Assembly: GCA_017460885.1 (NCBI GenBank)
Contig: JAFUAB010000022.1
Location: forward strand, 1-64,000
Direction of reading: 5' to 3'
DNA from: Lachnospiraceae bacterium
GTDB taxonomy: Bacteria; Bacillota; Clostridia; Lachnospirales; Lachnospiraceae
DNA length: 64,000 bases
Under the pieces are notes generated by a model that was not told where the DNA came from, did not search any database, and saw only the letters and a list, made by a program, of their open reading frames with translations. Both the position numbers and the translations under genes were made by a program. Shown piece by piece: positions 4,360 through 54,113 of this stretch (its first letter is position 1; each line of letters opens with the position of its first letter).

Positions 4360-4454
4360 CATGAGCTATCGGAAAATGTAAAGTTTAATTGGTGGACGAC
4401 CTGCCTGCGTTCACATATTATTGAGTTAACAATAATTGCGGAGGTGGGAAAAAC

Positions 4455-5960: not shown

Positions 5961-5991
5961 AGACGCGATCAGCATCCTTGCTTTGGCGGAT
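5923..5991 (+). repeat. 17-bp direct repeat bracketing a gene-fragment junction
   Basis: TCCTTGCTTTGGCGGAT occurs at 5923-5939, inside the end of the XRE-AbrB gene, and again at 5975-5991, at the start of the flavodoxin-like fragment. The copies are identical. This may be a footprint of a slipped or illegitimate recombination event that joined the fragment to this place. Confidence 0.7.
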
Positions 5992-7871: not shown

Positions 7872-9377
7872 ATGCCCAGCGTATTATCAATCATTCTGAT
7901 CAGTATTCTTGTTGTCGCACTTATAGCCATTATTGCGAGCGGTTATGTTAAGGCTCCGCCGGACATGGCGTACATCATATCCGGCTATAAGAAAAAACCC
8001 AGGATCCTCATAGGGCGGGCCGGAGTCAGGATTCCGTTTCTTGAAAGGAAGGATACACTTTCACTAAGGCAGATCTCCATAGACATCAAGACCAACGGTT
8101 TTATTCCGACACAGGACTTCATCGGCGTGGATATCGATGCGGTTGCCAAGGTTGCGATCATGAGAGACGAAGACGGCATACAGCGCGCTATGCAGAACTT
8201 CCTTAATATGCCGGAAGACATGATCATACAGTGCCTTACCGATTCACTTCAGGGTAATATGCGTGAGATCATCGGTACCGTTACTCTTAAGGAACTCTGT
8301 ACCGACAGAAAGAAGTTCGGTGACGAGGTACAGGAAAAGGCCCAGCAGGATATGAACAGACTTGGTATCCAGATCATATCCTGTAACATCCAGAAGATAG
8401 AAGACGAGAGAGATCTCATCAACGCACTTGGTCAGGACAATATGTCCCAGATCCAGAAGGACGCATCCATCGCCAAGGCAAATGCCGAAAGAGATGTTGC
8501 GATCGCTACAGCCAATGCACAACGTGAAGCAAATGAAGCCAAGGTAGCCTCCGACACCGAGATTGCCCAGAAGCAGAATGAACTTGCCATCAAACGCTCG
8601 GAACTCAAGAGAGAAGCGGATATCAAGCAGGCTGAAGCCGACGCCGCATATAAGATCCAGGAAGAGGAACAGCGTAAATCCATAGAGATCACTACCGCTA
8701 ACGCCAACCTTGCACGTCAGGAAAAAGAGATCGAACTAAAAGCAAGGGAAGTTGAGATAACAGAAAAAGCCCTTGAAGCCGAGATCAAGAAAAAAGCCGA
8801 GGCAGATAAGTATGCGGCTCAGCAGGCTGCAGATGCTAAGCTTTATACAACCCAGAAAACCTCAGAAGCCGAACTGTATGAGCGTCAGAAGCAGGCAGAG
8901 GCCGAGAAGTTTGAAGCCATACAGAAAGCAGAGGCTACCAAGGCCGAATCCGAGGCCAGAAGAATTGCGATGGAGAATGAAGCCGCCGGTATCAAAGCAA
9001 AAGGCGACGCAGAGGCTTCAGCCATCCAGGCTAAAGCAGAAGCTGAGGCTGCAGGTATCTTGAAAAAGGCGGAAGCCATGAAGCAGTACGGAGATGCAGC
9101 AAGACAGCAGATGCAGCTTGATACCCTGAAGGTATATTTCGAACAGCTTCCTGCCATCGCACAGGCTATCGCAGCGCCTATGTCGCAGATTGATAAGATC
9201 ACGATGTACGGCGAGGGTAATACCGCCAAGCTTACCGGCGATATCACGACCACCATCAAGCAGGTAACGGATGGAATTAAGGACTCAACAGGCGTTGATC
9301 CGTTGTCCCTCCTGGTCGGAGTATTGGGCGACCGTGCATTATCCGGAACAGGCAACAGTGATCCTGATGGAGAATAA
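7872..9377 (+). CDS. Flotillin-like SPFH membrane scaffold protein
   Basis: A 501-residue protein of the flotillin family (FloT/YuaG-like). One N-terminal membrane anchor (about residues 5-27) is followed by an SPFH/band 7 domain (30-200), a long Ala/Glu-rich coiled coil (about 205-440) and a Gly-rich C-terminus. Flotillins organise functional membrane microdomains in Gram-positive bacteria. The frame is open from 7662, but AGGAGGTG at 7859-7866 fixes the start at 7872, where the hydrophobic anchor begins. It ends convergently with the histidine kinase gene. Confidence 0.88.
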   Translation: MPSVLSIILISILVVALIAIIASGYVKAPPDMAYIISGYKKKPRILIGRAGVRIPFLERKDTLSLRQISIDIKTNGFIPTQDFIGVDIDAVAKVAIMRDEDGIQRAMQNFLNMPEDMIIQCLTDSLQGNMREIIGTVTLKELCTDRKKFGDEVQEKAQQDMNRLGIQIISCNIQKIEDERDLINALGQDNMSQIQKDASIAKANAERDVAIATANAQREANEAKVASDTEIAQKQNELAIKRSELKREADIKQAEADAAYKIQEEEQRKSIEITTANANLARQEKEIELKAREVEITEKALEAEIKKKAEADKYAAQQAADAKLYTTQKTSEAELYERQKQAEAEKFEAIQKAEATKAESEARRIAMENEAAGIKAKGDAEASAIQAKAEAEAAGILKKAEAMKQYGDAARQQMQLDTLKVYFEQLPAIAQAIAAPMSQIDKITMYGEGNTAKLTGDITTTIKQVTDGIKDSTGVDPLSLLVGVLGDRALSGTGNSDPDGE

Positions 9378-9439
9378 GATGCTGCCGGCTTGACATGAGT
9401 GCCAAGTTCCCCTTTATCAGATATAGATTAAGATCAAAA

Positions 9440-10639
9440 TCACCGTTTCGGGATGAACATGTTCACCCTGGTCCCGCCGGCTTCGCGAGCCTCAATCTGA
9501 AGTGTTCCGCCGCACATGGCTTCCAGACGCTTTCGTATACTGCTGATAGCAAATTGAGGATCTTCGTTTGACGGAGCATAGCCGGGACCGGTATCTTCAA
9601 CGATGATCCTGATGCCCGTATCCGTATCTTCTGTGGTTACAGAGACATATAACGGCTCCATATCGGGGTCAAGACCGTGCTTGACGGCATTTTCAACGAT
9701 CGGCTGGAGTGTCAGGGGCGGGATGCGGAAAAACGTGTCAGGAGTATCAAAATCAACAAATAACTGTCCTTCGAAACGCGCCTGTTCCACAGCAAGATAG
9801 GCGCGTGTGTGTTCTAACTCTTCTGAAAAAGGAATAGTATCATCCTTAGCTATGGCGGTGAAATTGGCTTGCAGGTATCGGGAAAAATCCTTGATCACGG
9901 CCTGTGCCTTTTCGGGATCCTGGGCGCACAGATAGTATATGCTCATCAATGTGTTATGGATGAAATGAGGACGCATCTGCAACACGGCGATGCGGGCGTT
10001 TTGCCTGGCAGATTCCTCCTGCTGTTCCTGATAACGCCTGACTAAACCGACCATAAGGAGAAACTCCATTAATATTCCCTGTATGTAGGATGGCGTGATA
10101 AAGCAGAGTAGAAATATGATCCACTGAATTACTGTCGGTCTTTTCCATCTTTTAAAAAGTCCGATCAATAAGACCGCAGTGATCGCTACGGACAGATAAA
10201 GGCAAATTATGGACCATCCCTCGCTGTGAACCTCATACCCCGGGGTAATGCTTATTTTGCCGGCAGCGTGCGCTGCGTTCTCTATAATGATAAGGAGTGC
10301 GACCAGTATGCATTGGCTGTACATAAGGGCGCTTCTGCGGTAGTCTTCACCGCAGGAGTAGAGGAAATAAGCCGTCATGAGCAGGGTCGGTACAGGAAAC
10401 AGCGGAATGTTTATGAGCATTACCAGATGGCAAACCGGTATCGGCGCATGGAAATAATTCATAAAAGCGCCTTCGACCAGGTTGGCGACCGCAACGATGA
10501 TCGATGAGGACATTATGGCGACGCACAGGCGTTTTGGCCATCTATCCACATCCCGAAGTATATATGTCAGTATAAGTCCGAATATACCGTATGGAATAGA
10601 TGCAGCTTCTGCAAACCAGCATCCGGGATCCTGCGGCAC
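9440..10639 (-). CDS. LytS/YehU-type sensor histidine kinase
   Basis: A 399-residue membrane kinase. About six hydrophobic segments (residues 10-205) lead into a His_kinase domain with the phospho-acceptor motif RPHFIHNTLMS (about residue 245). The HATPase_c domain has an N-box (PIVENAVKHGL), DTGPGYAPS and a C-terminal GGT motif. This class normally pairs with a LytTR response regulator; none is in the window. The likely start is GTG at 10639, which lies inside the frame of an upstream helix-turn-helix fragment in another frame. The first residues look spliced on, so the original start was probably lost. Confidence 0.78.
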   Translation of the reverse strand: MPQDPGCWFAEAASIPYGIFGLILTYILRDVDRWPKRLCVAIMSSSIIVAVANLVEGAFMNYFHAPIPVCHLVMLINIPLFPVPTLLMTAYFLYSCGEDYRRSALMYSQCILVALLIIIENAAHAAGKISITPGYEVHSEGWSIICLYLSVAITAVLLIGLFKRWKRPTVIQWIIFLLCFITPSYIQGILMEFLLMVGLVRRYQEQQEESARQNARIAVLQMRPHFIHNTLMSIYYLCAQDPEKAQAVIKDFSRYLQANFTAIAKDDTIPFSEELEHTRAYLAVEQARFEGQLFVDFDTPDTFFRIPPLTLQPIVENAVKHGLDPDMEPLYVSVTTEDTDTGIRIIVEDTGPGYAPSNEDPQFAISSIRKRLEAMCGGTLQIEAREAGGTRVNMFIPKR

Positions 10640-40675: not shown

Positions 40676-43600
40676 ATGTCTGAGTTAAATAATTGTGGAG
40701 AAATACAGTTCAGGGAAAATATAAATATTAATTCCGGCTTAATAACGGAGAACAGGAACAGTAATGAGAATATAAAACTGTTAGATGAGATCAACAAGAT
40801 CAACAATTTCAGTTTGTTACCGGAAAATCTGAGGGATCAGGATCAAAAAAATAATGCAGGGGCCAGAAATCAGGAAAAGTCCAAAGGAAGCAATGCAGAA
40901 AAAAAGTTTAAGGAAATTGACAGTGCTTCCGGTAAGATCATCAGAAACAACAAGGAAGTAAAGAAACCCAACTCCAATAATATTGAAGATGATGATGAGA
41001 AAGAAGAAGATGAATTCGGAGACATAACTCTGATACATTTTCGCGATGATAATCTGAAGCTTGATGATCTTGATGCTGATAATGATTCTTTTCTGAAGGA
41101 AGAGAATCAGATGGAAATAAATGTTACCGGGGCGGAAATAAGAGCTTCCAAAGTCAGGGAAAAAGAAAAAGCCAGGTCGAAAAAAACAGTAGATCGGGAC
41201 AAGGCTAAAGAGAATATAAAAAAATATCATGACATGCTTGAGGGAGCAGAGGACAGTATTTTTGGTGCTGAGGTCAGAAATCTTACAAAGACCAGATATG
41301 CTTCGGTGAGCGCCTTCAAGAAAAAGAAGCGTACCGATGAAGCTCTCGAACGTGAAAAATATGCAAAAAAAATAGAGGATACCATTAATGTCAGGGCTTT
41401 AGTGAACAATGAAGGGGACGATCCCGACTATATCACGGACAAAGAAACGCTCCTAAGTAAGATCAAAACGTTTATGAACATGCGTGACGACGAATACGAT
41501 CTGGACACGGATGAGAAATTTGCCGCCAATCTGGAAAAAAACTATCAGCTTACCAAATACGCCGAGCGTATGAGAAAATATGTGAATGATGCGATAGAGG
41601 GCAGATTTATGCCCGACAGCGTGGATCTGAATAAGCTTCAGAAGAAGATCAACAGCTTCGAGGAGCTTAAGAAGTATCTGGATGTACGTGTCAGGATCGT
41701 AACCAGTCCGTTCTACAAATATTGTGCAAGTCAGGATGTTGCATATTCGGATGACCAGCTGAATACTTTTATCAGCGGATTTGATTCCAAGAACGCGAAA
41801 TACAGGGAGGATAACGGAGAGGTACTTGAGTATCTGAAGAATATCAAGACATTCCGCGATCTTAAGTTTATCCGTAAAAAAGGCGTTGCGAGCGTCTCTA
41901 AGATAACCGATGAGCGTGGACTGCGTGAAGCCGAGCTGCTTCGTCATAAGGCTGCCAAACAGTCGATAGTCCGCGCAACTGCAGGGCAGTCGCTTCAGAT
42001 TTCCGATCTGAGACTCTATTCCGGGCAAAACCGCTTTACGGAAGAGAAGTTCATGAGTCTGCGCAGGGAATTTGCAGCTACGAAGCTCAGCGACCTTCAT
42101 TTTGAAAGCTTTTCCGATATGACCGTCTATGCGCGGATCAACGAGGAACTATTTGAAAGAGCCAGAACCATGGAGCATATGCTCTATCTTGCGGTATCGG
42201 ATGATCATCAGATCGATATCCCACGCGATGAACTCCATGCTATTCGTGCCAGGATCAGGGCATTTGATGTTATGGAACAGCTGTATCACAGTGTCAGAAA
42301 TGAGATGGTCCGTCATCCCGATGAGACCGTTGAAAATAAGACCTACAGTGAGATATGGAGCAGTGCGATCGATCTGATAAGCTCTAAGAATGTTGCCGGG
42401 AACAACGCAGTTTTCCCTGAAGTGGGCGCAAATCTTGATAAGTATTACAGGACGGTCCTCAAAAGTTTCCGTACCGGAAACAACGCGGCTCGTGACGATG
42501 CAGCCATAAAGAGCAGTATCATCAATGATCATCGGACATATACCCGTATATATGACGAGGTAATAACGGAAATCCGTTTTGACAGCTTCCTCGAGGCATA
42601 CGGGAAGAAGAGGAATATTAACGCAAGGGCTCTTTTTGTACCCGTTAACACATGGAAGAAGTATATGACGGGCAAATCGGTCGCAGAGGCGGACAGGGTC
42701 GTTAAGATCCTCTCGTCCGGTAAGGAAGAGGAAAAAACCCGGCTCATGGAGAGCGTTAACAGATCTGTAAATGCCGCAGCCGTAAATGACGGACAGGAGA
42801 TCGCGGAAGATCGTAAGGAAAGTATACTGCGTGATCAGCAGCCCGGGATGGAACGCATGCTTAACGGCGGGCTGAGCGAACTCATAGGCCCGGTGGGAGC
42901 AGGCTTTAAGGAGAGAAAGCTAACCGAATCACAGAGAGCGGAGCTGCTTAAGAAGGAGGGCAGCGAGCTTTTTGAAAAGAATTCTGATGCAGACACCATC
43001 CGTGATAAACAAAAGGAGTTTAACAGGAAACTGTTTACGATCAAAAATCGCATAACGACCGAAAACAGAGCCAAAGTCGGAGATAAGACAATGGATGATC
43101 TTGCAGCCGTTATGATCGGTAATTTTGTCGAGAGTGAAAGAACCACGGATGAGATGAACCTCTTTGTGAACGGGTATGCAACGGACAGAACTGCCGGTCT
43201 GGATCTGATCACCCGTTCGATCATGGCGCTTGAGATCGTTGTTCCCACTGAGTTTGAAGAAGCGAGTGCGAAGATGATCGCCGGGAACGCGGGAATGTTT
43301 GAAGAGATCACCAGAAAGGCATATGCGTACAGAAACCTGATGCGTGCCAATCCCGAATATCTCAAGAGCCTTAAGTCCCGTTTTGTCGGCGATGATGAAC
43401 AAAGTGATTATGATAAGGTGAATGAAAAGCTTAACCGGATGTTTGCTTATTCCGATTATTACCGCGCCTGCAAACTGGTGCTTAACGATAATTATTACAT
43501 TCTGCACGGTAATGATGAGATCGGCAGAAGTAATACCAGAGGTATGAACAGGGAACAGCGTCATCTCTATGATCTGATGAGGCTGGTGGATGTATGTCAT

Positions 43601-45628
43601 GGCCGTATGCAGGATAATGTCACTGACGACCGCCTCGGTGAAGCCGTCTTTTCCGTTGAAGAGACACTTGATACATATGAAAAGCAGTCCAGGATGCAGG
43701 GATACCGTACAGGGCGTGTCGATCTTACAAAGGCGACCGTAGCCCATACCGAAGAGGTACGAAAGCAGACAGAGAAGTTTCTGCACAAAATCTATACCGG
43801 TGGAAATATCAGAGACGACATCATGGAATACAAACCGGATCAGGACGATAGAGTGGAACGCTACAGAACAGCCGGTGTCGAGAATTATCTGGATGCATAT
43901 AAGACCCGGGAGGAAATGGGGGCCTATTATAACAGGGACAAGGGCGTGAATTTCCGTGATCCCGCTCAGCAGGCTCTGTTTGATAAGCTTTATAAGCTGG
44001 TAAAGCCCGGAGCAGCAGAGTTTGAGATCGGCTTCGATAACAGCTTTGGCGAAGAACAGGGCGAAAAATGGAAAATAAAAACCCAGATCTCCAGATTTTT
44101 GGGTGATCTGATCTACCAATGGTATGATAAAATGCCGGAGGAAGAGATGATCGATCTGATAGAGGGTCTGACTATTCAGCAGAGGATCGAGATCAGGGAT
44201 AAGCAAACATTTGATTATGCAAGGGAGAGGTGGCTCAGATCTGCCAAAAAACTCTTTGAAATACAGTATGAGACTTTAAAGAATCTGGAAAATACTTATG
44301 GTACACTTATGGCCGATATGCCGACGGCTGTGTTTATGAATTCACTCGTAGACGGGGGGATGAGAGATCTGCTGCTCAGGTGCCGTATAGGCCAGAATCT
44401 GACAGAGGCCTGTGATATGGATACCTGCACATATAACGATCAAAAGATCTCACTCGGACAGTTGCTTGTTAATGAAAAGCTGCTCGATCAGAGCACTCTT
44501 GATGATTCCAAAAAGAAACAGGCCGAATTCTATCAGATCCAGACTCTGACTGTAAACAGCTATCTAAGTAAGGCGGATGATCTGTTTGATGTAACCGGAA
44601 ACAAGGATAATGACCCCACGTTGAACGTGTCATACGGATATACAAGCTACTATTCACTGAAAAATGCCATTGATAAGAACGATATCGGAGGGCCTCATCT
44701 GAACTATTCAGACAGCAGAAAACTGTGGAAGGATGCATTATCATCAGGAAAGAAGTATCTCACCGGAACTGAAGAGACAAGCCTGTTCGCGGGTGATTTT
44801 TACAGACTGCACGGATCAAAGGAACGTAACGAGATCAAAAAACTCAGACGTAAGGGAATGGAATTCGATAAGCAGACCCGTGTATACCTCAGGGATCGCA
44901 GTGATCTGCTCTATAATAAAACATTGACGAAGGCACATATTAATGCTGAAGAGCTGGATGCGGATAAGCTTACGATGATCAAGAAGCTGATGGTATTCCA
45001 TCCCGGGTTCTCCAGATTTTATCCGGATAATGATCAGCAGTATATTGCAAAGACGGATGAGTTTATTAACAATATCAGGCTTTTTGCGGGTGTCGGGGTA
45101 GCAGACGACAAGCTTAAGTCCTCCAGGCAGCAGGCGTTTGAGTATTTTCGAAAGAGTGCAGCCAAGCTGGTTACGGATGTATCTGCAAGAACCCCGGATG
45201 AGCTTTTGAAGAACAGCCGTGTGCTGCAGGATGATGCACCGGTCCTGGGCAGTGAAATGATGAAAATGGAAACCTGTCATGCGATGTATGAATTGCTGCA
45301 GGATATGGTAAAGTATGGTGATGAACTTAACTGGTTTACCGAAGACGCCAGAGAAAAACTCAAGAAAGATGTATTTCTTAACCTGCGTATGGAGGTCATG
45401 AGACTCAGTATTTCAAGCAATTATTACCAGAACCTCAAGGATATCTCGGGCAGGAAGGAAACCGAACTGGCCAGGAATTATATGTCGCTTCAGGCTTTGG
45501 GAGGAGAAAAGACCAGATTTGAAACCAATAATCTTGAGAGGTGTGTATTCTCGGATAAGGGTGTCACAAAGCTGTTAAAGCAGTTTGGAGTGCGTCTGGA
45601 TCCTTTTTTGAGAGATGATCATCACTGA
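40676..45628 (+). CDS. Giant charged helical protein of unknown function
   Basis: A 1650-residue protein without signal peptide or membrane segment. The first 180 residues are low-complexity, Asn/Glu/Lys/Asp-rich and probably disordered; the rest is mostly helical and strongly charged. No known domain or catalytic motif is recognised. Segments with repeated Tyr/Arg spacing recur, e.g. SPFYKYCASQDVAYS (about 345), RNLMRANPEYLKSLK (about 885) and HPGFSRFYPDNDQQYIAKTD (about 1440), suggesting several diverged copies of one helical module. The protein at 15215 may share it. GGAGG precedes the ATG and it has its own promoter, so it is transcribed alone. Size and isolation fit an effector, scaffold or surface-associated factor, but that is a guess. 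Confidence 0.7.
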   Translation: MSELNNCGEIQFRENININSGLITENRNSNENIKLLDEINKINNFSLLPENLRDQDQKNNAGARNQEKSKGSNAEKKFKEIDSASGKIIRNNKEVKKPNSNNIEDDDEKEEDEFGDITLIHFRDDNLKLDDLDADNDSFLKEENQMEINVTGAEIRASKVREKEKARSKKTVDRDKAKENIKKYHDMLEGAEDSIFGAEVRNLTKTRYASVSAFKKKKRTDEALEREKYAKKIEDTINVRALVNNEGDDPDYITDKETLLSKIKTFMNMRDDEYDLDTDEKFAANLEKNYQLTKYAERMRKYVNDAIEGRFMPDSVDLNKLQKKINSFEELKKYLDVRVRIVTSPFYKYCASQDVAYSDDQLNTFISGFDSKNAKYREDNGEVLEYLKNIKTFRDLKFIRKKGVASVSKITDERGLREAELLRHKAAKQSIVRATAGQSLQISDLRLYSGQNRFTEEKFMSLRREFAATKLSDLHFESFSDMTVYARINEELFERARTMEHMLYLAVSDDHQIDIPRDELHAIRARIRAFDVMEQLYHSVRNEMVRHPDETVENKTYSEIWSSAIDLISSKNVAGNNAVFPEVGANLDKYYRTVLKSFRTGNNAARDDAAIKSSIINDHRTYTRIYDEVITEIRFDSFLEAYGKKRNINARALFVPVNTWKKYMTGKSVAEADRVVKILSSGKEEEKTRLMESVNRSVNAAAVNDGQEIAEDRKESILRDQQPGMERMLNGGLSELIGPVGAGFKERKLTESQRAELLKKEGSELFEKNSDADTIRDKQKEFNRKLFTIKNRITTENRAKVGDKTMDDLAAVMIGNFVESERTTDEMNLFVNGYATDRTAGLDLITRSIMALEIVVPTEFEEASAKMIAGNAGMFEEITRKAYAYRNLMRANPEYLKSLKSRFVGDDEQSDYDKVNEKLNRMFAYSDYYRACKLVLNDNYYILHGNDEIGRSNTRGMNREQRHLYDLMRLVDVCHGRMQDNVTDDRLGEAVFSVEETLDTYEKQSRMQGYRTGRVDLTKATVAHTEEVRKQTEKFLHKIYTGGNIRDDIMEYKPDQDDRVERYRTAGVENYLDAYKTREEMGAYYNRDKGVNFRDPAQQALFDKLYKLVKPGAAEFEIGFDNSFGEEQGEKWKIKTQISRFLGDLIYQWYDKMPEEEMIDLIEGLTIQQRIEIRDKQTFDYARERWLRSAKKLFEIQYETLKNLENTYGTLMADMPTAVFMNSLVDGGMRDLLLRCRIGQNLTEACDMDTCTYNDQKISLGQLLVNEKLLDQSTLDDSKKKQAEFYQIQTLTVNSYLSKADDLFDVTGNKDNDPTLNVSYGYTSYYSLKNAIDKNDIGGPHLNYSDSRKLWKDALSSGKKYLTGTEETSLFAGDFYRLHGSKERNEIKKLRRKGMEFDKQTRVYLRDRSDLLYNKTLTKAHINAEELDADKLTMIKKLMVFHPGFSRFYPDNDQQYIAKTDEFINNIRLFAGVGVADDKLKSSRQQAFEYFRKSAAKLVTDVSARTPDELLKNSRVLQDDAPVLGSEMMKMETCHAMYELLQDMVKYGDELNWFTEDAREKLKKDVFLNLRMEVMRLSISSNYYQNLKDISGRKETELARNYMSLQALGGEKTRFETNNLERCVFSDKGVTKLLKQFGVRLDPFLRDDHH

Positions 45629-45646: not shown

Positions 45647-46192
45647 TCACCTGAATATCTCTTCGATCGCCCCGGCGATCACCTGAATGATCAGTTCATT
45701 CTCTTCTGCGGGATGTTCGTGACGAAGAAAAGCAATACCTGTAAAGAAAAACTCGAGTTTGAGGCGGTTTTCTCTTGTATCCGGAAGGAGATTGAGGGAG
45801 ACCGCCTGTTCCATAAATGCGTTGCATATGTGAAATGACAGTGTTCTGTTGTATTTAAAATTCCTGTCATGGAAAAACGGGTCCATGGACATTTTTTCAT
45901 GACTGAAAAAGTCCAGAACAAGACGTCTGGCAAATTCTTCCGGATCGCTGAACATATAGTTCAGGAGATCAAGTTCCATGATCATCTCGGTAATATGCTT
46001 GGCCAGAGCATCCTGATAAAGAGAGTATATATCAGAGTAGTGGAGATAAAATGTAGCTTTGTTGATCTCTGCCTTTTCCGCGAGTTCGGATATCGTGATC
46101 TTTTCCAGCTCTTTCTTCTTAAGCAGTTCTATAAGCGCGTTATATATTGCCCTTTCGGTCTTGATCACTCTAAGATCTTTTTTCTTTTGCAT
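45647..46192 (-). CDS. TetR/AcrR-family transcriptional regulator
   Basis: A 181-residue regulator. The N-terminal TetR helix-turn-helix is clear: ITISELAEKAEINKATFYLH (residues 33-52). The C-terminal ligand domain resembles TetR_C proteins of Firmicutes. It is divergent from the MATE-ATPase operon, with an operator-rich 158-bp gap between them, so it most likely represses itself and that operon. The ligand is unknown and could be the product or substrate of the operon. Confidence 0.85.
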   Translation of the reverse strand: MQKKKDLRVIKTERAIYNALIELLKKKELEKITISELAEKAEINKATFYLHYSDIYSLYQDALAKHITEMIMELDLLNYMFSDPEEFARRLVLDFFSHEKMSMDPFFHDRNFKYNRTLSFHICNAFMEQAVSLNLLPDTRENRLKLEFFFTGIAFLRHEHPAEENELIIQVIAGAIEEIFR

Positions 46193-46233: not shown

Positions 46234-46321
46234 TTAATTAATCGACATTCCGAGGACACCTGTCTATTAATCAATCATTTATTATTCATTGTTGATTAAT
46301 TAATATACAATTGTCGATTAA
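46234..46321. promoter_or_regulatory. Nested inverted repeats, candidate TetR operators
   Basis: Outer pair: TTAATCGACA (46238-46247) and TGTCGATTAA (46312-46321). Inner pair: ATTAATCAA (46266-46274) and TTGATTAAT (46292-46300). Both share the core ATTAATC and are centred around 46280. A TACAAT -10 candidate (46306-46311) for the right-hand operon lies within. This arrangement fits cooperative binding of the TetR protein. Confidence 0.6.
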
Positions 46322-46350
46322 ATATTATCATGTAAAAGCAACTGTGTCAA

Positions 46351-48126
46351 ATGGGAGTATGGGATAATGTTCCGGAATATGGTAATATAGATAGCATGAT
46401 CAGAGATTCCAGATTTCTGCAGAAAAAGTTCAGAAATGAGCTCATTCCCGTTATGATCTCCCTGCTTGGCGGAACCGTAAATACGCTGATCGATTCTGCG
46501 TTCGTGGCCAGGAAACTTGATTCCGATGCACTTGCGGCACTAGGACTGAATATGCCTGTCTTCCTGACACTATGCCTTATCGGGTGTCTTTTCGGCTCCG
46601 GGGCTTTTGTCTCGGCATCCAGAGAGTTCGGACACCACGGCACCGAAAAAGCTGCCCGTTTATATCATACGGCTCTTTTGTCCGCGGTTATCGCAGGCGG
46701 GATCGTAATGCTCACAGGGATATTTTTTTCGGATGGCATATCAGTCTTTATCTGCAATGATGCCGGGATCCTTCCTATGGTAGAGGATTATTGCAGGATA
46801 ACACTGATCGGTGCGCTGCCTTATGTTCTGATATATTTTCCGAACTATTTCCTGCAGCTGGATGGTAAAACACGTAAGATATCCCGGGTCATGCTCACAA
46901 TGATGCTTACGGATATCCTGTTTGACTGGATCTTTATATATCTGCTGGACATGGGAGTGGCGGGAGCCGCTTATGCCTCGGTATTTTCAATGGTCATAGC
47001 GTGTATATACGGGTTCGCCTGTCTGCAGGATCGTGACGGAATATTTTATTTCAGGTGGAAGTATCTGGGATTTACCGGCTTAAGGAGCATCCTGTCACTC
47101 GGAAGTACGCAGGCTATAGGCAGTCTGATGGCGACTCTCAGGATGTTCTTTCTGAACCGGCTTATCCTTATGGCCGGAGGTACCGATGCAATGGCGACAT
47201 GGACTGTCATCAATTCCATGATAGAGATCTCCAAATGCATTATTTCCGGGGTTCCGCGAACAGCTTCACCGCTCCTTGGAGTGTATATCGGCGGATATGA
47301 CGATGAGGGTATCAAGATGCTGGTCAGGCTTGAGATCAAAACGGGAATGATATTGGTTTCGATATTCTCCGCAGTGCTCATTATCCTGAATCATCCCATC
47401 GGGTTGTTTTTCAAACTGGATCGATCGGTTCTGATACCGCTCGTATGTCTGTGCATATCGCTGGAAGCCGAGCTGATATGTTCGGTTCTGGGATCATATT
47501 ATAACGTTGCCGGAAGAGTGGGCCTGTCCAATTATTCCATGATCCTCAGATCCTTTCTTTGCCCGGTTCTGAGTGCCTTTGTACTTTACCTGTGTAAGGG
47601 ACTGATCTGGCTTTTTATGCCCGTGGGGATGATCCTGTGCCTGCTCTGTACGTTATTCCTGGCGAGCAGGATCGCGTATCCCAACAAATCCGGGATGACC
47701 TTTAATTCCGGGATACTGTTTTTATATTCCGAACGAAACGGGCTGAAGGATGTTGTCAGCCTGTCGATAGACGGAACCGATGAAAAGATCTGTGAAGCCA
47801 GTGAAGCCATAGTGGATTTCTGTGTAGACAACAGCATGGATCTCAAAACAGCCACCAAGCTTGGGCTTTCCCTGGAAGAGGTTATGACCGTTATGGCTGA
47901 AAAAAGCCTCAGATCCAAGGATGAGCCGGTGGATGTCAGAGTCTTTTCGGATAGAAAGGGCACCGGTATCACAATAATGTGCTCCGGTAGCAGATACGAT
48001 CTTTTTGAAGAGGCACAGGAGAGCGAAGACGATTTTGACCTTGGGATCAGGCTTATACAGAAGATTGCAAGAGAATGCGATTACACATATACCTTAGGCT
48101 TAAACATACTTACGGTAGGAATCTGA
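46351..48126 (+). CDS. MATE efflux transporter fused to an anti-sigma-like ATPase domain
   Basis: A 591-residue protein. Residues about 15-440 are a MATE/MatE-type transporter with twelve membrane segments and the usual internal two-fold layout. Residues about 465-591 form a cytoplasmic domain like RsbW/SpoIIAB ATPases: an N-box-like LSLEEVMTVMAEKS (about 509-522) and a final helix region DLGIRLIQKIA. The DxG nucleotide motif is degenerate (SGSRYDLF), so ATP binding is doubtful. A start at 46396 is possible, as no good ribosome site precedes 46351. Next gene starts 1 bp after its stop. It couples export to the signalling genes at the end of the operon. Cargo unknown. Confidence 0.78.
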   Translation: MGVWDNVPEYGNIDSMIRDSRFLQKKFRNELIPVMISLLGGTVNTLIDSAFVARKLDSDALAALGLNMPVFLTLCLIGCLFGSGAFVSASREFGHHGTEKAARLYHTALLSAVIAGGIVMLTGIFFSDGISVFICNDAGILPMVEDYCRITLIGALPYVLIYFPNYFLQLDGKTRKISRVMLTMMLTDILFDWIFIYLLDMGVAGAAYASVFSMVIACIYGFACLQDRDGIFYFRWKYLGFTGLRSILSLGSTQAIGSLMATLRMFFLNRLILMAGGTDAMATWTVINSMIEISKCIISGVPRTASPLLGVYIGGYDDEGIKMLVRLEIKTGMILVSIFSAVLIILNHPIGLFFKLDRSVLIPLVCLCISLEAELICSVLGSYYNVAGRVGLSNYSMILRSFLCPVLSAFVLYLCKGLIWLFMPVGMILCLLCTLFLASRIAYPNKSGMTFNSGILFLYSERNGLKDVVSLSIDGTDEKICEASEAIVDFCVDNSMDLKTATKLGLSLEEVMTVMAEKSLRSKDEPVDVRVFSDRKGTGITIMCSGSRYDLFEEAQESEDDFDLGIRLIQKIARECDYTYTLGLNILTVGI

Positions 48127-48127
48127 A

Positions 48128-50398
48128 ATGAACAGTCTTTATCCTTTATTAACGGGCAGATTCATAGAGGGCAGGACGGATCTGGACAGGCTTATCACCC
48201 CGGCGATCCTGCATATTTTTCGCAGAACAACCCTGGATTATATGAAAAACTGCAACTGTCCCCCTCTTTCTTCGGAGCAGCGGCATAAGATCAGAGATTT
48301 CTACGGCAGATATACCCGCGTAGATCCGCTCTATCACAGAGTATATACCGGCCGTTCGGGGCAGTTCTTTACGGAATATATGCCGGATGATATATACTTT
48401 GGCCGGATAGAACCCTTTTATACCGACAGACTCTGCTCCAGAGCGCTTGATAACAAATGTTATTACTATAGTTTCTTCTCAAACGTGAAGCTGCCGCGGC
48501 TTATAGTCATGAGGATAGGCTCAAACTGGGTTGATGCAAATTTACGGCTGATCAGCTTCCGGGATGCATGTGAGCTGGTCGGTAAAGAGCAAAGATGTGT
48601 TGCCAAGAGAGCCCTTTATTCGGAGGGCGGTTACGGTCTTGCCTTTCTGGAGGGAGAGGAAGCCGTTTCCGGATTTAAGAGGTTTGTCCGCAAGAACAAT
48701 ACCGATATAGTGGTTCAGGCTGTGATAGACCAGCATCCCGAGTATTCGAGGCTTCATCCTCAGTCCGTTAATACCGTCAGACTGATGTCGCTGCTTACGC
48801 CGGAGGGAGTTAAGGTATTTGCGGGAGCCGTCCGGATAGGAACCGGTGCCAGCAGAGTCGATAATCTGGCTGTTGGCGGAGTGTTCTGCGGATTGGACGG
48901 ATCGGGTAATCTGTCCCGGATAGGAGTATTGAATGACGGAGGAGTGGTCACATCTCATCCGGAGCTGGGCTACAGCTTCGAAGGGATCAGATTGCCGTAT
49001 TATGACAGGGCGGTAGAGCTGGTGGAGCGGGCTCACGGCATAATGGCTCATTGCAGGCTGGCATCCTGGGATGTGGCGATAGACAGCGAGGGAGATGCTG
49101 TTCTGATAGAGACAAATCTTTCGCTTGGTACGATCCACAGTATGCAGGTCTGCTGCGGACCGATATTCGGTGAGGACACCCGTAAGATACTTGATGAGGT
49201 TTATTTCGACAAAAAGGGCAGAAAAAGAAGGAAGCCTTATCTGGGACTTAACCCCAGAGACTATTATTATCTCAGGGATAATCTGCTGGGAATACTTCGC
49301 GGCTATTACAAACCCGGTTATACCCATATACAACTGCTTGGAAACACGGCACTTCGTGTGATAGATAAAAAGCTGATCGATGAAGTATCCGGTCTGTATC
49401 CGGAGCTTACGGATGAGCAGAAGCAGGAGACACGGGATTATTACAGACCTTATGTCAGACGCGTTAATACGGATTCCCATAAGGTATATTCCGGTAAATC
49501 CGGAAGGTTCTACCCCGATTATATCCCCGAGGATATGTATATGTGCGATATAGACAGATATCTTAGTGACAGGGAAACTGCTTATTATCTTGATAACAAA
49601 TGCTATTATTACCGCCTTTTTGCCGGAATAAGGCAGCCGGAAGCGGTAGTGATGCGCATAAACGGGATCTGGATGGATGCAGATTACCGTGTGATCGACA
49701 AAAAAGCGGTTGCAATGAAGCTGTTTGCGGCAGACAGCATAGTAGTTAAAGCCGCCAACGGTTCTGAGGGAGGAGTCGGCGTTACTTTTCTGGAGCTTGG
49801 CAGGATCAGCGGCAGAAGGGAAAAAATCTCCGCATTCTCGAATGTTTTGCGGGGTATGAAAAACGATATCATCGTTCAGAAGACGATAGGGCAGTATGCT
49901 CCGCTTAAAGCTCTTCATCCCGAATCACTGAATACTTACAGGATCGTATCACTGCTTATAGACGGCGGGGTCAGGATAATTGACAGGTGTCTTAAGATCG
50001 GAGTCGGCAGCAGCAGGGTAGATAACGGCAGCTCGGGCGGGATATTCTGCGGAGTCATGAGTAATGATACACTTGGACCGATAGGAACATTTATGAACGG
50101 ACGCGTGATAAAGCGCCATCCGGATCTTGGATATCTCATAGAGGGAACGCAGGCATATCATATAAAAGAATGTGAGGAGCTCGTACAAAGGGCACATCCC
50201 GTACTCGGGCATCACAGACTGGTATCCTGGGATGTGGCAGTAGATGAAAGCGGATCTGCCGTTTTGATAGAAGCCAATCTGGCCCTGGGAGGCAGTGACC
50301 AGGTTCAGGCGGTGTGCGGCCCTTTTTTCGGAAAGTATACCGGGGCAGTACTTAAGGAAGTATATGGAGATCGCAAAGCTTTACGACAAAATAAATAA
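48128..50398 (+). CDS. Tandem-duplicated ATP-grasp (sugar-transfer-associated type) protein
   Basis: A 756-residue protein made of two homologous halves, about residues 45-365 and 412-750. Each half contains YLDNKCYYY/ALDNKCYYY, a VNTVRLMS/LNTYRIVS strand, a G-[TV]-G-[AS]-SRVDN loop, RL[AV]SWDVA and a final metal-binding [IE]ET/EAN-L strand (VLIETNLSLG, VLIEANLALG). The pattern matches the ATPgrasp_ST family (PF14397), ATP-dependent ligases often near polysaccharide or glycopeptide genes. The duplication suggests two coupling steps or one degenerate half; both keep the acid residues I can see. It overlaps the next gene by 35 bp. Confidence 0.75.
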   Translation: MNSLYPLLTGRFIEGRTDLDRLITPAILHIFRRTTLDYMKNCNCPPLSSEQRHKIRDFYGRYTRVDPLYHRVYTGRSGQFFTEYMPDDIYFGRIEPFYTDRLCSRALDNKCYYYSFFSNVKLPRLIVMRIGSNWVDANLRLISFRDACELVGKEQRCVAKRALYSEGGYGLAFLEGEEAVSGFKRFVRKNNTDIVVQAVIDQHPEYSRLHPQSVNTVRLMSLLTPEGVKVFAGAVRIGTGASRVDNLAVGGVFCGLDGSGNLSRIGVLNDGGVVTSHPELGYSFEGIRLPYYDRAVELVERAHGIMAHCRLASWDVAIDSEGDAVLIETNLSLGTIHSMQVCCGPIFGEDTRKILDEVYFDKKGRKRRKPYLGLNPRDYYYLRDNLLGILRGYYKPGYTHIQLLGNTALRVIDKKLIDEVSGLYPELTDEQKQETRDYYRPYVRRVNTDSHKVYSGKSGRFYPDYIPEDMYMCDIDRYLSDRETAYYLDNKCYYYRLFAGIRQPEAVVMRINGIWMDADYRVIDKKAVAMKLFAADSIVVKAANGSEGGVGVTFLELGRISGRREKISAFSNVLRGMKNDIIVQKTIGQYAPLKALHPESLNTYRIVSLLIDGGVRIIDRCLKIGVGSSRVDNGSSGGIFCGVMSNDTLGPIGTFMNGRVIKRHPDLGYLIEGTQAYHIKECEELVQRAHPVLGHHRLVSWDVAVDESGSAVLIEANLALGGSDQVQAVCGPFFGKYTGAVLKEVYGDRKALRQNK

Positions 50399-51938
50399 AT
50401 ACAGGGATTCGTTTGCGGAGAATAACCGCAATACGCTTATGCGGATCCTTAATGACAATTCAGGGACCGAATTTGGGACGGAATACGGTTTTATCACCCT
50501 GGATACGGAGGAACGGTATCGAAGCAGTGTACCGATAAGTCATTATTCCGATTATGACGGTTATATCCAACGCATGTATCTGGGAGAGAAGAATCTGCTA
50601 TACCGATACGATACTTACAGCTTTCTGGAAACCTCGGGCTCCACGGATGCGGGCAAGCTTATTCCGATAAGCGTCAGGTCACTCGAACAGTTTGGAGATG
50701 ATATGGACAGATATCTGCAGGAGCATGCGCGTACTCACGGAGGCAGGAGACTGCTCGTATCCTTTCTCAGGACGGATCTCGGCAAAAAAAGCGTAAGACA
50801 CGATACGATGCTTTTTACAGCGTCATATTACAGGTATCTGTATGAAAAAGGACTGCTTCCGACGGATGTGCTGGCCGGCGGTAAAGAACTGAATTTCTAT
50901 GCGTCGGCTTGTGACTTTTTGTATGCTAAGCTGTGGATCGCCTTTGCATATGGTGATCTTTGCACTCTTGAATCGGTTTATCTGTATGATCTTCTGATCT
51001 TTTTCCGGTATATGGAAGAGCATTATGAAGAAGTGATATCGGATATGGAGCAGGGAAGTGCAGCGGAGGATAAGGATATCCCGCCGGAGATCAGAAGCAG
51101 TCTGGGATCGATACCCGTTGATCACGACAGACTTGCCATGATCAGAAAAGAATGCGAAAAAGGTTTTGACGGCATTGCAGCCAGACTGTGGCCCGGGCTG
51201 AGCCTGATAAGCGGCATCGGAAGCAAGGCTTTTCAGGTTGAGGAGATATCGCTCAAAAAATACACCGCTGACATACCCGTCTGGCATTATATATATGCTG
51301 CTTCGGAGTGTGTTATGGCGGTTCCCTCCGGAACCGATACATATGATTATATCCTGCTTCCCGGAAATGCCTACTTTGAATTCCTTTCGGTGGATGAGGA
51401 ACGTGTCGTACTGCCTCGGGAACTGAGGATCGACTCCTGTTATGAACTTGTATTGACGACTTTCTCGGGCTTATACAGGTATGCAATGGGTGATATGATC
51501 AGGGTTACGGGCTTCGAGGGTAGTGTTCCGGTCATCAGGTTTATGTATCGCAGGAATCTGGTAATGAATATAGCCGGAGAAAAGCTGAGCATGGATACTT
51601 TGGACAGGGTTGTACGCAGATGGAGCAGAGAAACCGGCAATGAGGTGTGGCAGTATTATTTTTATGAGGATTATTCGCAGATGCCGGCATGTTATCACGG
51701 AGTTATTGCGACATCCGATGGAAAAAGTGTTATTATAGACAAAGACGAAATTGATGTTTTTGAGCGGATTCTCAGAGAATTCAGCAAAGACTATGATGAT
51801 CTGCGCAGACTGCGGACGATACGCAGAGCCGAGATCGAATTCGTGGACAAGGACGAGATCATGACACGGCAGTCGGAAAGAAACAGCGGGGCCGGACAGC
51901 CCAAACCGGTGCATATATGGAGGAAAGCACATGACTGA
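50364..51938 (+). CDS. GH3-family adenylate-forming acyl-amido synthetase
   Basis: A 524-residue protein of the GH3 family, known from plant auxin- and jasmonate-amino acid synthetases and found in some bacteria. Seen: the phosphate-binding loop LETSGSTDAGKLIPIS (about residues 85-100) and the C-terminal signature SGLYRYAMGDMIRVTGF, followed by a FMYRRN...EK stretch. Such enzymes activate a carboxylate with ATP and join it to an amine, usually an amino acid. The start at 50364 (AAGGAAG upstream) overlaps the ATP-grasp gene by 35 bp and its end overlaps the phosphatase by 8 bp, so translation is coupled. Substrate unknown. Confidence 0.8.
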   Translation: MEIAKLYDKINKYRDSFAENNRNTLMRILNDNSGTEFGTEYGFITLDTEERYRSSVPISHYSDYDGYIQRMYLGEKNLLYRYDTYSFLETSGSTDAGKLIPISVRSLEQFGDDMDRYLQEHARTHGGRRLLVSFLRTDLGKKSVRHDTMLFTASYYRYLYEKGLLPTDVLAGGKELNFYASACDFLYAKLWIAFAYGDLCTLESVYLYDLLIFFRYMEEHYEEVISDMEQGSAAEDKDIPPEIRSSLGSIPVDHDRLAMIRKECEKGFDGIAARLWPGLSLISGIGSKAFQVEEISLKKYTADIPVWHYIYAASECVMAVPSGTDTYDYILLPGNAYFEFLSVDEERVVLPRELRIDSCYELVLTTFSGLYRYAMGDMIRVTGFEGSVPVIRFMYRRNLVMNIAGEKLSMDTLDRVVRRWSRETGNEVWQYYFYEDYSQMPACYHGVIATSDGKSVIIDKDEIDVFERILREFSKDYDDLRRLRTIRRAEIEFVDKDEIMTRQSERNSGAGQPKPVHIWRKAHD

Positions 51939-53637
51939 GAATAAAAAGGTCCGCAGAGCAGGGCTTACAGTCAAGATCATAGCGTTGTTCTTTATAGTGG
52001 GCTTACTTATATATGTCGGAGCTATCGTTGTAGGTTACATGCAATATGATCATTCCATCAAGGAGTATTATGATCAGATGGCCTATGATGCGTCGGAGAT
52101 AGCTGCCGGATATTTTGAGGATGGTGAACTCGCCCGGTATGCCCGTGCAGCCTATGAATATAATTACGGCAGGGTTACCGAAGAAGAGACTCAGGCCATT
52201 ATGGCGGAACCAAGGTATCAGGAGATGATCTCCGATCTGCATAAGCTTCGCGCAAGCGTTGAAGCAAACGATGTTTTTGTGGTGGTTCTGGATGTCGATG
52301 TTATGAAGAACTTCACCGAAGAGGCATATGCAGAAAAAAAGTGGAAGCCCATCTACTATATCGCCGACAGTTACACGATTCCCGAAGAGAATTACCCCCT
52401 CGGCGGTAAGGGCGGGATCGAACTGATGTTTAAGGACGCGGTACTGGAATCATACTTAAGCGGAGAGAGATATCAGGGGTTCTATATTTCGGAAAGCAAA
52501 TTCGGATACAATATGACAGCCATGTATCCGGTCGTTGAAGACGGCAGCTCGGTTGCCTTTGTCGGGGTCGAGATCCCGATGAAGACTCTGCAGACCAACA
52601 TCGCCAAGTTTGTTACCCGCGTTTCACTTATTACACTGCTTATTGTCATACTCAGTCTCATAACGGTGATCGCGTTCTCCTACAAGTATGTTATTTCTCC
52701 GATCAAGCTTGTATCATCGGAGGCGAATCATTTCATCGAAAACCAGACCGAGATATCCGAGAAGCTGCGTACGATCCGGACCCGTGACGAGATCCAGACC
52801 CTCAGCGAGAGCATTTATCAGATGGAGGTCGGTATCAATGAGTATATTGACAATCTACAGAGAGTCACGGCCGAAAAGGAACGTATAGGTGCTGAATTAT
52901 CCGTAGCCACACAGATACAGGCAGATATGCTTCCATCGATATTTCCGCCTTTCCCGGACAGGCATGAGTTTGATATTTTTGCAACCATGGATCCGGCCAA
53001 GGAGGTTGGAGGAGATTTCTATGACTTCTTCCTGGTGGATGATGATCATCTTGCACTTGTGATGGCGGATGTATCCGGTAAGGGAGTTCCGGCGGCCCTG
53101 TTCATGGTGATAGCCAAGACTCTGATCAAGAACAGAACTCAGATGGGAGGAACTCCCGGAGATATCCTGGCAGATGTTAACGATCAGTTGTGTGAAGGGA
53201 ATAAAGCCGAACTGTTTGTTACGGTCTGGCTTGCCATAATAGAGATATCCACCGGAAGGGGGATCGCGGCAAATGCGGGACATGAGCATCCCGCTATACG
53301 TCGTGCCGGCGGAGATTGGGAACTTGAGATTTATAAGCATTCACCTGCCGTGGCCACTATGGAGGGACTTCCTTTCAGGGAGCATGAATTTGAGCTTCAT
53401 CCCGGTGACAGACTCTATGTATATACCGACGGAGTGTGTGAAGCCACAGATTCGGAAAACGTTCTTTACGGACCCGACAGGATGCTTGCGGCATTGAACA
53501 GGGAGCCGGAAGCGGAACCGTCAAAGCTTCTCGAGAACGTGAAGAAGGATATAGACATTTTTGTCGGAGAGGCACCGCAGTTTGATGATATTACCATGCT
53601 TGGACTTATCTGGTATGGAACGGAGGGAAACGCATGA
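51931..53637 (+). CDS. Membrane-bound SpoIIE/PP2C-type phosphatase with HAMP domain
   Basis: A 568-residue sensor phosphatase. One membrane segment (about residues 13-35), an extracytoplasmic sensor region (36-225), a second segment (about 230-252), HAMP and coiled coil (253-320), and a C-terminal PPM phosphatase domain (about 330-565) with EVGGDFYDF, ADVSGKGVPAALFM, NAGHEHPAI and YTDGVCEATD. All metal-binding Asp residues are kept. These phosphatases normally dephosphorylate a STAS anti-anti-sigma protein, but no STAS gene is in the window. It overlaps the GH3 gene by 8 bp and the RsbW-like gene by 4 bp. Confidence 0.88.
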   Translation: MTENKKVRRAGLTVKIIALFFIVGLLIYVGAIVVGYMQYDHSIKEYYDQMAYDASEIAAGYFEDGELARYARAAYEYNYGRVTEEETQAIMAEPRYQEMISDLHKLRASVEANDVFVVVLDVDVMKNFTEEAYAEKKWKPIYYIADSYTIPEENYPLGGKGGIELMFKDAVLESYLSGERYQGFYISESKFGYNMTAMYPVVEDGSSVAFVGVEIPMKTLQTNIAKFVTRVSLITLLIVILSLITVIAFSYKYVISPIKLVSSEANHFIENQTEISEKLRTIRTRDEIQTLSESIYQMEVGINEYIDNLQRVTAEKERIGAELSVATQIQADMLPSIFPPFPDRHEFDIFATMDPAKEVGGDFYDFFLVDDDHLALVMADVSGKGVPAALFMVIAKTLIKNRTQMGGTPGDILADVNDQLCEGNKAELFVTVWLAIIEISTGRGIAANAGHEHPAIRRAGGDWELEIYKHSPAVATMEGLPFREHEFELHPGDRLYVYTDGVCEATDSENVLYGPDRMLAALNREPEAEPSKLLENVKKDIDIFVGEAPQFDDITMLGLIWYGTEGNA

Positions 53638-54056
53638 AAAGATTGCAGACAGAAGCAAAGCTGGACAACCTGAATGAAGTTTTGGCCTTTGCGGATGAGA
53701 TACTTGAGGAAGCCGGATGCTCAATGAAGGATCAGACTGCGATTGATATTGCCTTAGAGGAAATGTTTGTTAATATCGTGAGTTATGCCTATACAGACAG
53801 CGGCGTTCCGGAAAGTGAACAGACAGCGGAGGTGATCATGGATGTGTCCGGAGATCCGGCTTCAGTGAGCATTACGCTTATAGACGGCGGGATCCCGTTT
53901 GATCCGCTTGCCAAAGAGGATCCGGATACCACTCTGTCGGCAGAGGAAAGACAGATCGGCGGATTGGGAATATATATGGTCAAGCAGACCATGAACAGGG
54001 TCGAATACCGGAGAGAAGACAACAAGAACATCTTTACTATGGAGAAGACTATCTGA
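53634..54056 (+). CDS. RsbW-like anti-sigma factor / serine kinase
   Basis: A 140-residue GHKL ATPase. The N-box ALEEMFVNIVSYAY (about residues 40-53), G1 box DGGIPFDP (about 84) and G2 box IGGLGIYMVKQTM (about 107-119) are all intact. Such proteins hold a sigma factor or phosphorylate a STAS partner. ATGA overlap with the phosphatase gene indicates coupled translation, so both act on one switch. The partner is not encoded nearby. Confidence 0.88.
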   Translation: MKRLQTEAKLDNLNEVLAFADEILEEAGCSMKDQTAIDIALEEMFVNIVSYAYTDSGVPESEQTAEVIMDVSGDPASVSITLIDGGIPFDPLAKEDPDTTLSAEERQIGGLGIYMVKQTMNRVEYRREDNKNIFTMEKTI

Positions 54057-54080: not shown

Positions 54081-54113
54081 GGCACGACCTAAGAGTTCTT
54101 CTTAAGGCGTGCC
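54081..54113 (-). terminator. Terminator of queT
   Basis: GGCACG and CGTGCC plus an inner CTTAAGA/TCTTAGG pairing form a strong hairpin. On the minus strand it is followed by TTTTTT, so it ends queT transcription; on the plus strand it lacks a T-run. Confidence 0.75.

What the first reader, a model, noticed from the sequence alone, without database searches (positions are those of the whole stretch)
46351..54056. MATE-ATPase, double ATP-grasp, GH3 ligase, SpoIIE phosphatase and RsbW in one coupled operon
Five genes overlap or touch each other (gaps of 1 bp, overlaps of 35, 8 and 4 bp). Two ligase families that build amide bonds (ATP-grasp, GH3) are joined to an exporter and a partner-switch pair. 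A divergent TetR gene with nested operators controls the unit. I know of no described system with this set. A reasonable model is production and export of an amino-acid conjugate or similar signal, with PP2C/RsbW sensing at the membrane. The usual STAS partner and sigma factor are missing from the window.
Basis: partly seen in the sequence, partly recalled or inferred. Interest (0 to 1): 0.75.

Follow-up and report, generated by a model that had tools for sequence, protein, structure and literature searches.

The report
Partner-switch-controlled amide ligase and exporter operon
An operon joins enzymes that probably stick amino acids onto fatty or other acids, a pump that probably exports the product, and an on/off protein switch that normally controls gene expression but here seems to have no such target.

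Summary
Five genes at 46351-54056 form a tight unit: MATE with a degenerate RsbW-like tail, double ATP-grasp, GH3 ligase, membrane SpoIIE-type PP2C, RsbW. A divergent TetR gene lies across repeated operator-like half-sites.

The full set is rare but real. Of 62 GH3 loci, 17 have partner-switch genes within 6 kb. A PP2C gene lies near GH3 in 15 of 44 genomes tested (15 of all 54 fetched) against about 1 expected. In a well-supported GH3 group with the window, 8 of 10 loci are linked, across family, order and class.

The "missing" STAS is beside the module in relatives. Genome G116 has GGDEF-STAS-ATP-grasp-MATE-GH3-PP2C-RsbW in one run. The window genome keeps its best STAS candidate on another contig, beside a GGDEF protein and a closely related PP2C. 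No SigB/F/G sigma factor was found above cut-off, so the output is probably not a sigma factor.

Best model: GH3 (with ATP-grasp) makes an acyl-amino-acid product, MATE exports it, and the switch gates the process, perhaps by STAS docking on the MATE tail. Families are shown; substrate, product and output are inferred. New variant of a known kind.

The parts
45647..46192 (-). TetR-family regulator, divergent from the operon
   Evidence: TetR_N 26.8 bits, cut-off 24
46234..46328 (.). operator-like region: four copies of a TGT(C/T)GATTAATTAA-like half-site in both orientations
   Evidence: direct and inverted repeats; function not tested; the stretch is A+T rich, no shuffle control was made
46351..48126 (+). 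MATE transporter fused to a C-terminal RsbW-like HATPase tail that lacks the N-box Asn and G1 Asp (alternative start 46396)
48128..50398 (+). double ATPgrasp_ST ligase; by eye both copies keep the Lys/Gly-Gly and Glu-x-Asn motifs (motifs recalled)
   Evidence: two stretches, 219 bits; alignment A4; Foldseek matches include carbamoyl-phosphate synthetase, RimK, Ddl and ATP-grasp peptide ligases (model pLDDT 66.5)
50364..51938 (+). GH3-family acyl-acid amido synthetase
   Evidence: GH3 domains; best solved relative 7dk8 (GH3.8), E 6.9e-40; three nucleotide-binding motifs conserved
51931..53637 (+). membrane sensor with cytoplasmic SpoIIE-type PP2C phosphatase
   Evidence: SpoIIE 149 bits; Foldseek matches to RssB, SiaA-PP2C and an RsbU domain (model pLDDT 77, pTM 0.44); sensor domain unnamed
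53634..54056 (+). RsbW/SpoIIAB-like kinase with intact N-box, G1 and G2
   Evidence: HATPase_c_2 84.5 bits; alignment read by eye
54081..54113 (.). hairpin between the operon and the convergent QueT gene; its T run, read by eye, favours termination of the minus-strand gene
   Evidence: sequence and fold

Best explanation
The operon makes and exports an amino-acid conjugate under partner-switch control. GH3 activates a free acid (most likely a fatty acid) with ATP and joins it to an amino acid; the two ATP-grasp domains add or join further residues; the MATE protein moves the product across the membrane. A TetR repressor controls transcription. The membrane PP2C senses an outside signal and dephosphorylates a STAS protein that RsbW phosphorylates. 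STAS is supplied from contig C44. Its free form acts on a target other than a SigB/F/G sigma factor: most likely the MATE tail (a dead HATPase fold that could bind STAS without phosphorylating it), the C44 diguanylate cyclase, or both. Shown: gene families, motifs, linkage across genomes, no SigB/F/G match over the cut-off, position of the STAS genes. Inferred: substrate, product, direction of transport, TetR control, and what STAS binds.
For: GH3 matches plant acyl-acid amido synthetases over 394-484 residues (10 solved sequences) and keeps the Ser that, matched by motif, is essential in OlsH (11 of 11 rows; OlsH data in PMC12493201 section 7). Linkage: PP2C within 6 kb of GH3 in 15 of 44 genomes, expected 1.03; the 10 fetched genomes left out of that count add none. 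In 62 GH3 loci: MATE-HATPase 11, STAS 12, SpoIIE 15, RsbW 8. GH3 group with support 100/99 in which 8 of 10 loci are linked. STAS in the module on the same strand: L033, L037, L038, L140. G116: its only STAS besides one in a 554-aa frame, its only HATPase_c_2 over the cut-off and its one listed PP2C all lie in the module, and it has no SigB/F/G over the cut-off. Window genome: the two best SigB/F/G-profile hits are RpoD and a FliA/WhiG sigma. Best STAS candidate L059_6: 60% identical to the G116 module STAS, in a locus with GGDEF and a PP2C whose catalytic part is 69% identical to the window's. MATE tails without the N-box have a PP2C neighbour in 10 of 13, the others in 8 of 45, p 1.5e-4. Among 44 further MATE-HATPase fusions, 3 lie by LPG_synthase_C genes (Pfam) and 8 by NRPS-type adenylation domains (my own profile; Pfam-checked only in L205).
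Against: 45 of 62 GH3 loci have no partner-switch gene within 6 kb (some are cut by contig ends), and 29 of 44 further MATE-HATPase fusions have none. In 4 of the 15 loci with PP2C (L036, L046, L122, L123) it is on the opposite strand from GH3, so it is not in one operon. GH3 and the switch genes can occur apart: G233 has ATP-grasp, MATE-HATPase and a PP2C-sensor gene at a contig end and its GH3 on another contig. No substrate or product is known. STAS binding to the MATE tail is pure inference. The window genome is a 55-contig assembly with 6.6% estimated contamination, so an absent sigma factor could be missing sequence, and the C44 contig could in principle be foreign. Other genomes with the module (G057, G225, G314, G985) do have SigB/F/G sigma factors. 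The enrichment model assumes uniform placement and ignores relatedness; the tail comparison is post hoc, by regular expression, with one known misassignment (L226).
Confidence: 0.5

Rival explanations
1. The partner switch controls c-di-GMP, as in SiaABCD: STAS acts on the GGDEF protein, and the ligase/exporter genes share the operon because the product (for example a surface lipid or polymer) is needed in the same state. The MATE tail is a vestige.
For: G116 has GGDEF directly before STAS in the module and the window genome has STAS and GGDEF in one run on C44. Control of diguanylate cyclases by STAS or STAS-like proteins is known (SiaD, HsbD, BgrR; two passages of PMC8457831).
Against: A GGDEF protein of this kind is near GH3 in only 1 of 62 loci (profile from two seeds), while STAS, PP2C and RsbW recur without it. 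The tail is kept as a domain across divergent fusions, which a vestige need not be.
Confidence: 0.25
2. Detoxification: GH3 conjugates a toxic acid (plant phenolic, bile or fatty acid) with an amino acid and MATE pumps the conjugate out; the TetR protein is relieved by the acid, and the PP2C senses envelope stress.
For: TetR + MATE + conjugating enzyme is a usual layout of inducible resistance (recalled). Solved GH3 enzymes act on benzoates, jasmonate and auxin (molecule names). A MATE, ABC or MFS gene by my profiles lies within 6 kb in 30 of 62 GH3 loci.
Against: It gives no role to two ATP-grasp domains. TetR next to GH3 was not counted in all loci; with the window TetR as query, one of the 21 other loci (L040) had a match beside GH3. 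MATE-HATPase fusions also lie by NRPS and LPG-synthase-type genes, which build products.
Confidence: 0.15
3. Ordinary anti-sigma operon that happens to lie beside unrelated metabolic genes; RsbW controls a general stress sigma factor.
For: PP2C, RsbW and STAS are the standard parts of SigB control (recalled). Four module genomes (G057, G225, G314, G985) do have SigB/F/G sigma factors.
Against: No SigB/F/G over the cut-off in the window genome, G261, G116, G233 or G079; the two best hits in the window genome are RpoD and FliA/WhiG. Linkage of PP2C to GH3 is far above chance under uniform placement.
Confidence: 0.05

Closest known systems
OlsH/OlsI N-acyl-ornithine pathway of Singulisphaera acidiphila (PMC12493201; abstract, sections 6-8 and the first of two parts of section 9 read)
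   Same: GH3-fold, ATP-dependent amide synthesis without CoA or ACP; same three nucleotide-binding motifs; amino-lipid product
   Different: Not the OlsH equivalog (51 bits, cut-off 620); no hydrolase-type O-acyltransferase among the five genes; instead ATP-grasp, MATE and a partner switch
SiaABCD of Pseudomonas aeruginosa (PMC8457831 two passages; PMC7647112 abstract)
   Same: Membrane PP2C, kinase and STAS-like protein whose output is not a sigma factor; a diguanylate cyclase-type gene is present in the G116 module and in the window genome
   Different: SiaA model 56 bits against a cut-off of 700; STAS here is the SSAGLR type, whereas SiaC is DUF1987; ligases and exporter are new parts
SpoIIE/SpoIIAB/SpoIIAA and RsbU/RsbW/RsbV partner switches (recalled)
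   Same: Same three protein families, with intact RsbW motifs and STAS serine
   Different: No SigB/F/G over the cut-off in the window genome; RsbW models below their cut-offs
MprF aminoacyl-lipid synthase-flippase (recalled)
   Same: Couples an aminoacylating enzyme to a lipid-moving membrane protein; three LPG_synthase_C genes lie beside MATE-HATPase and PP2C genes in L210, L212, L213
   Different: The window uses GH3 and ATP-grasp with a MATE protein

Membership tests
GH3 acyl-acid amido synthetase | GH3 N, middle and C domains | tested here: met
   153, 73 and 27.2 bits, each cut-off 23.6
GH3 acyl-acid amido synthetase | three nucleotide-binding motifs and the essential motif-I Ser | tested here: met
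   SGSTDAGK, YAASE, GLYRYAMGD; the Ser is invariant in 11 of 11 rows; motif definition from PMC12493201 section 6, matched by eye
GH3 acyl-acid amido synthetase | joins an acid to an amino acid | not testable with these tools
   needs an enzyme assay
OlsH (lyso-ornithine lipid synthetase) | NF052613 curated cut-off | tested here: not met
   51 bits, cut-off 620
Partner-switching system | PP2C and HATPase_c_2 kinase in one unit | tested here: met
   149 and 84.5 bits; intact boxes
Partner-switching system | STAS antagonist with phosphorylatable Ser | tested here: inconclusive
   not in the window; SSAGLR-type STAS beside the module in L033, L037, L038, L140 and on C44 of the same genome; interaction untested
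SigB/SigF type partner switch | cognate SigB/F/G sigma factor | tested here: not met
   none over the cut-off in the window genome; the two best hits are RpoD and FliA/WhiG
SiaABCD | SiaA equivalog | tested here: not met
   56 bits, cut-off 700
ATPgrasp_ST (PF14397) | curated cut-off | tested here: met
   219 bits, cut-off 31.4, two stretches
MATE transporter | MatE domain | tested here: met
   76 bits, cut-off 24.9; NCBIfam matE 123 bits is under its cut-off of 147
RsbW-like kinase (MATE tail) | N-box Asn and G1 Asp for ATP binding | tested here: not met
   EEVMTVM and CSGSRYD in the window

The most novel reading that the evidence does not exclude
A partner switch whose receiving partner is a transporter: the ATP-binding residues of the MATE tail have been lost and the tail now docks STAS, so that sensed dephosphorylation of STAS opens or closes export of a lipid- or acid-amino-acid conjugate made by GH3/ATP-grasp. 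The same chassis is re-used with NRPS and LPG-synthase-type enzymes in other genomes of the same bacterial family.
Probability: 0.3. Interest if true: 0.82.

Novelty: new variant of a known kind. Interest (0 to 1): 0.64.

Why it matters
Known outputs of partner switches are mainly sigma factors (recalled) and, in some cases, diguanylate cyclases (PMC8457831 passages). Here the switch genes travel with a ligase and an exporter, in several genomes where no SigB/F/G sigma factor was found, which points to control of an export or synthesis machine by protein docking. It also gives bacterial GH3 enzymes, of which one from a planctomycete has a demonstrated product in the literature seen here, a defined genetic setting and a list of testable partners. 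The organisms are unnamed, probably Clostridia (inferred from one named relative, L052).

Tried and rejected
Defence system: no PADLOC match at E 0.001 for the five proteins. Plasmids: GH3 matches in 8 records at 23-30% identity, none covering 80%; not followed. Sensor domain of the PP2C: no Pfam family at a convincing score, and the 50 Foldseek rows shown of 523 name PP2C-type proteins, so its ligand class stays open; a relative (L213) has an sCache_3_2 match below the cut-off. The double ATP-grasp model is of moderate confidence (pLDDT 66.5), so only the general fold is used. Literature: full-text searches for GH3 with ATP-grasp and MATE (1 paper), OlsH/GH3 (20 of 27 listed), N-acyl amide with GH3 and Clostridia (15 of 443), sugar-transfer-associated ATP-grasp (none), partner switch with transporter (7), MATE with RsbW (3), SiaABCD (3), anti-sigma antagonist with MATE/GH3 (10 of 941) and bacterial GH3 (10 of 195). 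No listed title or abstract start described this set; unlisted papers were not seen.

My first neighbourhood tables chose the longest of overlapping ORFs and so missed RsbW in L033, L038 and L140 and STAS in L154; one search exposed this and recounted in all frames. The count of 15 of 44 genomes was made by eye from the places and includes G302, whose PP2C match carries a stop, and G539, whose match lies at a contig end. The 44 are part of the 54 handled genomes behind the 62 loci; the other ten (G233, G060, G080, G370, G499, G569, G564, G534, G915, G822) have no SpoIIE within 6 kb of the fetched GH3. In the family sample, seven GH3-bearing genomes with mostly weaker matches (G023, G052, G128, G187, G190, G240, G253) were not fetched.
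Full report
Check of the observation. That start and those of PP2C and RsbW have good ribosome sites inside the preceding gene. Pfam supports each name: MatE, two ATPgrasp_ST stretches, all three GH3 domains, SpoIIE, HATPase_c_2, and a divergent TetR_N. The MATE tail is an RsbW-like HATPase only in outline: 20.8 bits, below the cut-off, with the N-box Asn and G1 Asp gone. Between the divergent genes lie four related half-sites. A hairpin separates the unit from the convergent QueT gene.

Is it a real unit? The window GH3 protein found relatives in 25 of 299 genomes of its family. A profile of 11 GH3 proteins matched 46 of 392 genomes drawn from the order and 27 of 391 from the class; the samples overlap. 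I fetched neighbourhoods for 60 of these GH3 loci, the better-scoring ones, from 54 genomes (window genome included), plus one named contig (L052), and annotated them with profiles built from window and locus proteins. With the window that makes 62 loci. Within 6 kb of GH3, in all six frames: MATE with HATPase tail 11, STAS 12, SpoIIE 15, RsbW 8, any partner-switch gene 17, two or more kinds 11, ATP-grasp 3. So 45 of 62 loci have no partner-switch gene; some of these are cut by contig ends. In four of the 15 loci with SpoIIE (L036, L046, L122, L123) it lies on the strand opposite to GH3. As a control, 44 of the 54 genomes were searched for SpoIIE: they hold few each (1 to 11 matches), yet 15 of 44 have one within 6 kb of GH3, against 1.03 expected under uniform placement, Poisson tail 4e-13. 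The ten genomes left out add none. Relatedness is not corrected for.

The GH3 tree (69 rows, midpoint root) puts the window with G261, then G116 and G985 (another family of the class), then G314 (another family of the order) and G233, then G057, G225, G076 and G060 in a group with 100/99 support. Of these 10 rows 8 have partner-switch genes; in G076 that is only a SpoIIE gene on the opposite strand. The two without are L039, whose GH3 begins about 140 bases from a contig end, and L034 (G233), whose ATP-grasp, MATE-HATPase and PP2C-sensor genes lie together on another, 4.9-kb contig. The tree needs at least five gains or losses of the partner-switch + MATE-HATPase state; which of them are gains cannot be told.

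Gene orders (unless noted). Window: MATE, ATP-grasp x2, GH3, PP2C, RsbW. G261: MATE, ATP-grasp x2, GH3, PP2C, at a contig start, with RsbW and STAS together on another contig. G116: GGDEF, STAS, ATP-grasp, MATE, GH3, PP2C, RsbW. G057 and G225: STAS, MATE, GH3, PP2C, RsbW, with two extra genes after STAS in G225. G314: STAS, GH3, MATE, PP2C, RsbW. G985: STAS, GH3, PP2C fused to RsbW. The same-genus genome G041 in the family sample has no GH3 match but does have a MATE-HATPase fusion.

The switch and its output. The window genome has five STAS places. The one on C44 (L059_6) is 60% identical to the G116 module STAS; the two other stand-alone ones are 34-35%. It lies in a run with a 210-aa and a 253-aa protein of no Pfam match at 0.001, a GGDEF protein and a dCache PP2C whose catalytic part is 69% identical to the window's, close to the 73-74% seen between the window and the G261 and G116 module enzymes. 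I therefore take it as the most likely partner in trans. The window genome, G261, G116, G233 and G079 have no SigB/F/G sigma over the cut-off; G057, G225, G314 and G985 do. In the window genome the two best hits are RpoD and FliA/WhiG. In G116 the only HATPase_c_2 over the cut-off, the only STAS besides one in a 554-aa frame, and the one listed SpoIIE (a second match fell below the listed rows) all lie in the GH3 unit. That makes a SigB-type output unlikely there.

The MATE tail. A profile of the fusion matched 117 of 299 family genomes at 1e-60, a count that includes plain MATE proteins. In 40 loci fetched from that list I found 44 further fusions: partner-switch genes within 6 kb of 15, some on the opposite strand; LPG_synthase_C of 3 (Pfam); NRPS-type adenylation domains of 8 by my own profile, Pfam-checked only in L205. 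Of 58 distinct tails, 13 lack the N-box by a simple pattern: 10 of these have a SpoIIE neighbour against 8 of the other 45 (Fisher p 1.5e-4), and 7 of 13 against 7 of 45 have RsbW (p 0.009). The pattern miscounts L226 as intact, related rows are not independent, and the test was made after seeing the trend. It suggests that a tail loses its own ATP site when a full switch is at hand, and then serves as a dock.

The chemistry. GH3 is closest among solved structures to plant GH3 enzymes (GH3.8, 7dk8, E 6.9e-40). OlsH, a bacterial GH3, makes N-acyl ornithine from free fatty acid, ornithine and ATP (PMC12493201: abstract, sections 6-8 and part 1 of section 9 read), and its essential motif-I Ser is invariant here. 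The window protein is not the OlsH equivalog, so the amino acid is open. The double ATP-grasp protein has no solved relative by sequence at E 0.1; its moderate model resembles carbamoyl-phosphate synthetase, RimK, Ddl and ATP-grasp peptide ligases. The four ATP-grasp proteins over 40% identity, the window's included, each lie next to a MATE-HATPase gene. An amide ligase pair feeding one exporter is the simplest reading.

Comparison. It works like a partner switch with a non-sigma output; the nearest described cases control diguanylate cyclases (SiaD, HsbD, BgrR; passages of PMC8457831). It is not a member of SiaABCD nor, in this genome, of the SigB/F type. No paper listed in the searches described the set (listings were capped). 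I call it a new variant of a known kind. What is not shown: product, transport, phosphorylation, any protein contact, TetR control and co-transcription.

Noticed in passing
L226:9918-11513 (-), L229:6065-7708 (+): Na+/dicarboxylate (SDF) symporters with an N-terminal region that by eye looks like a degenerate RsbW-type HATPase; the first lies beside STAS and a MATE-HATPase gene. Transporter-HATPase fusions may be a wider class.
   Followed up: partly
L219 (G041, same genus): 4292-5962 (+): SulP sulfate permease with C-terminal STAS two genes upstream of a MATE-HATPase fusion.
   Followed up: no
L058 (own genome C51): 8939-10478 (+): STAS gene next to an ABC ATPase fused to an RsbW-type HATPase (396 aa): another possible partner switch with a transport-type output.
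   Followed up: no
L210, L212, L213: LPG_synthase_C (aminoacyl-lipid synthase type) next to MATE-HATPase and PP2C genes, in L213 also RsbW; in L212 in one protein with a formyltransferase domain.
   Followed up: partly
L141, L142, L143, L146, L147: Tandem GH3 genes beside paired ABC transporter genes in other families of the class, with STAS upstream in L141 and L142.
   Followed up: no
window 40676-45628 (+): 1650-aa ORF with no Pfam match at E 0.01, convergent with the TetR gene.
   Followed up: no
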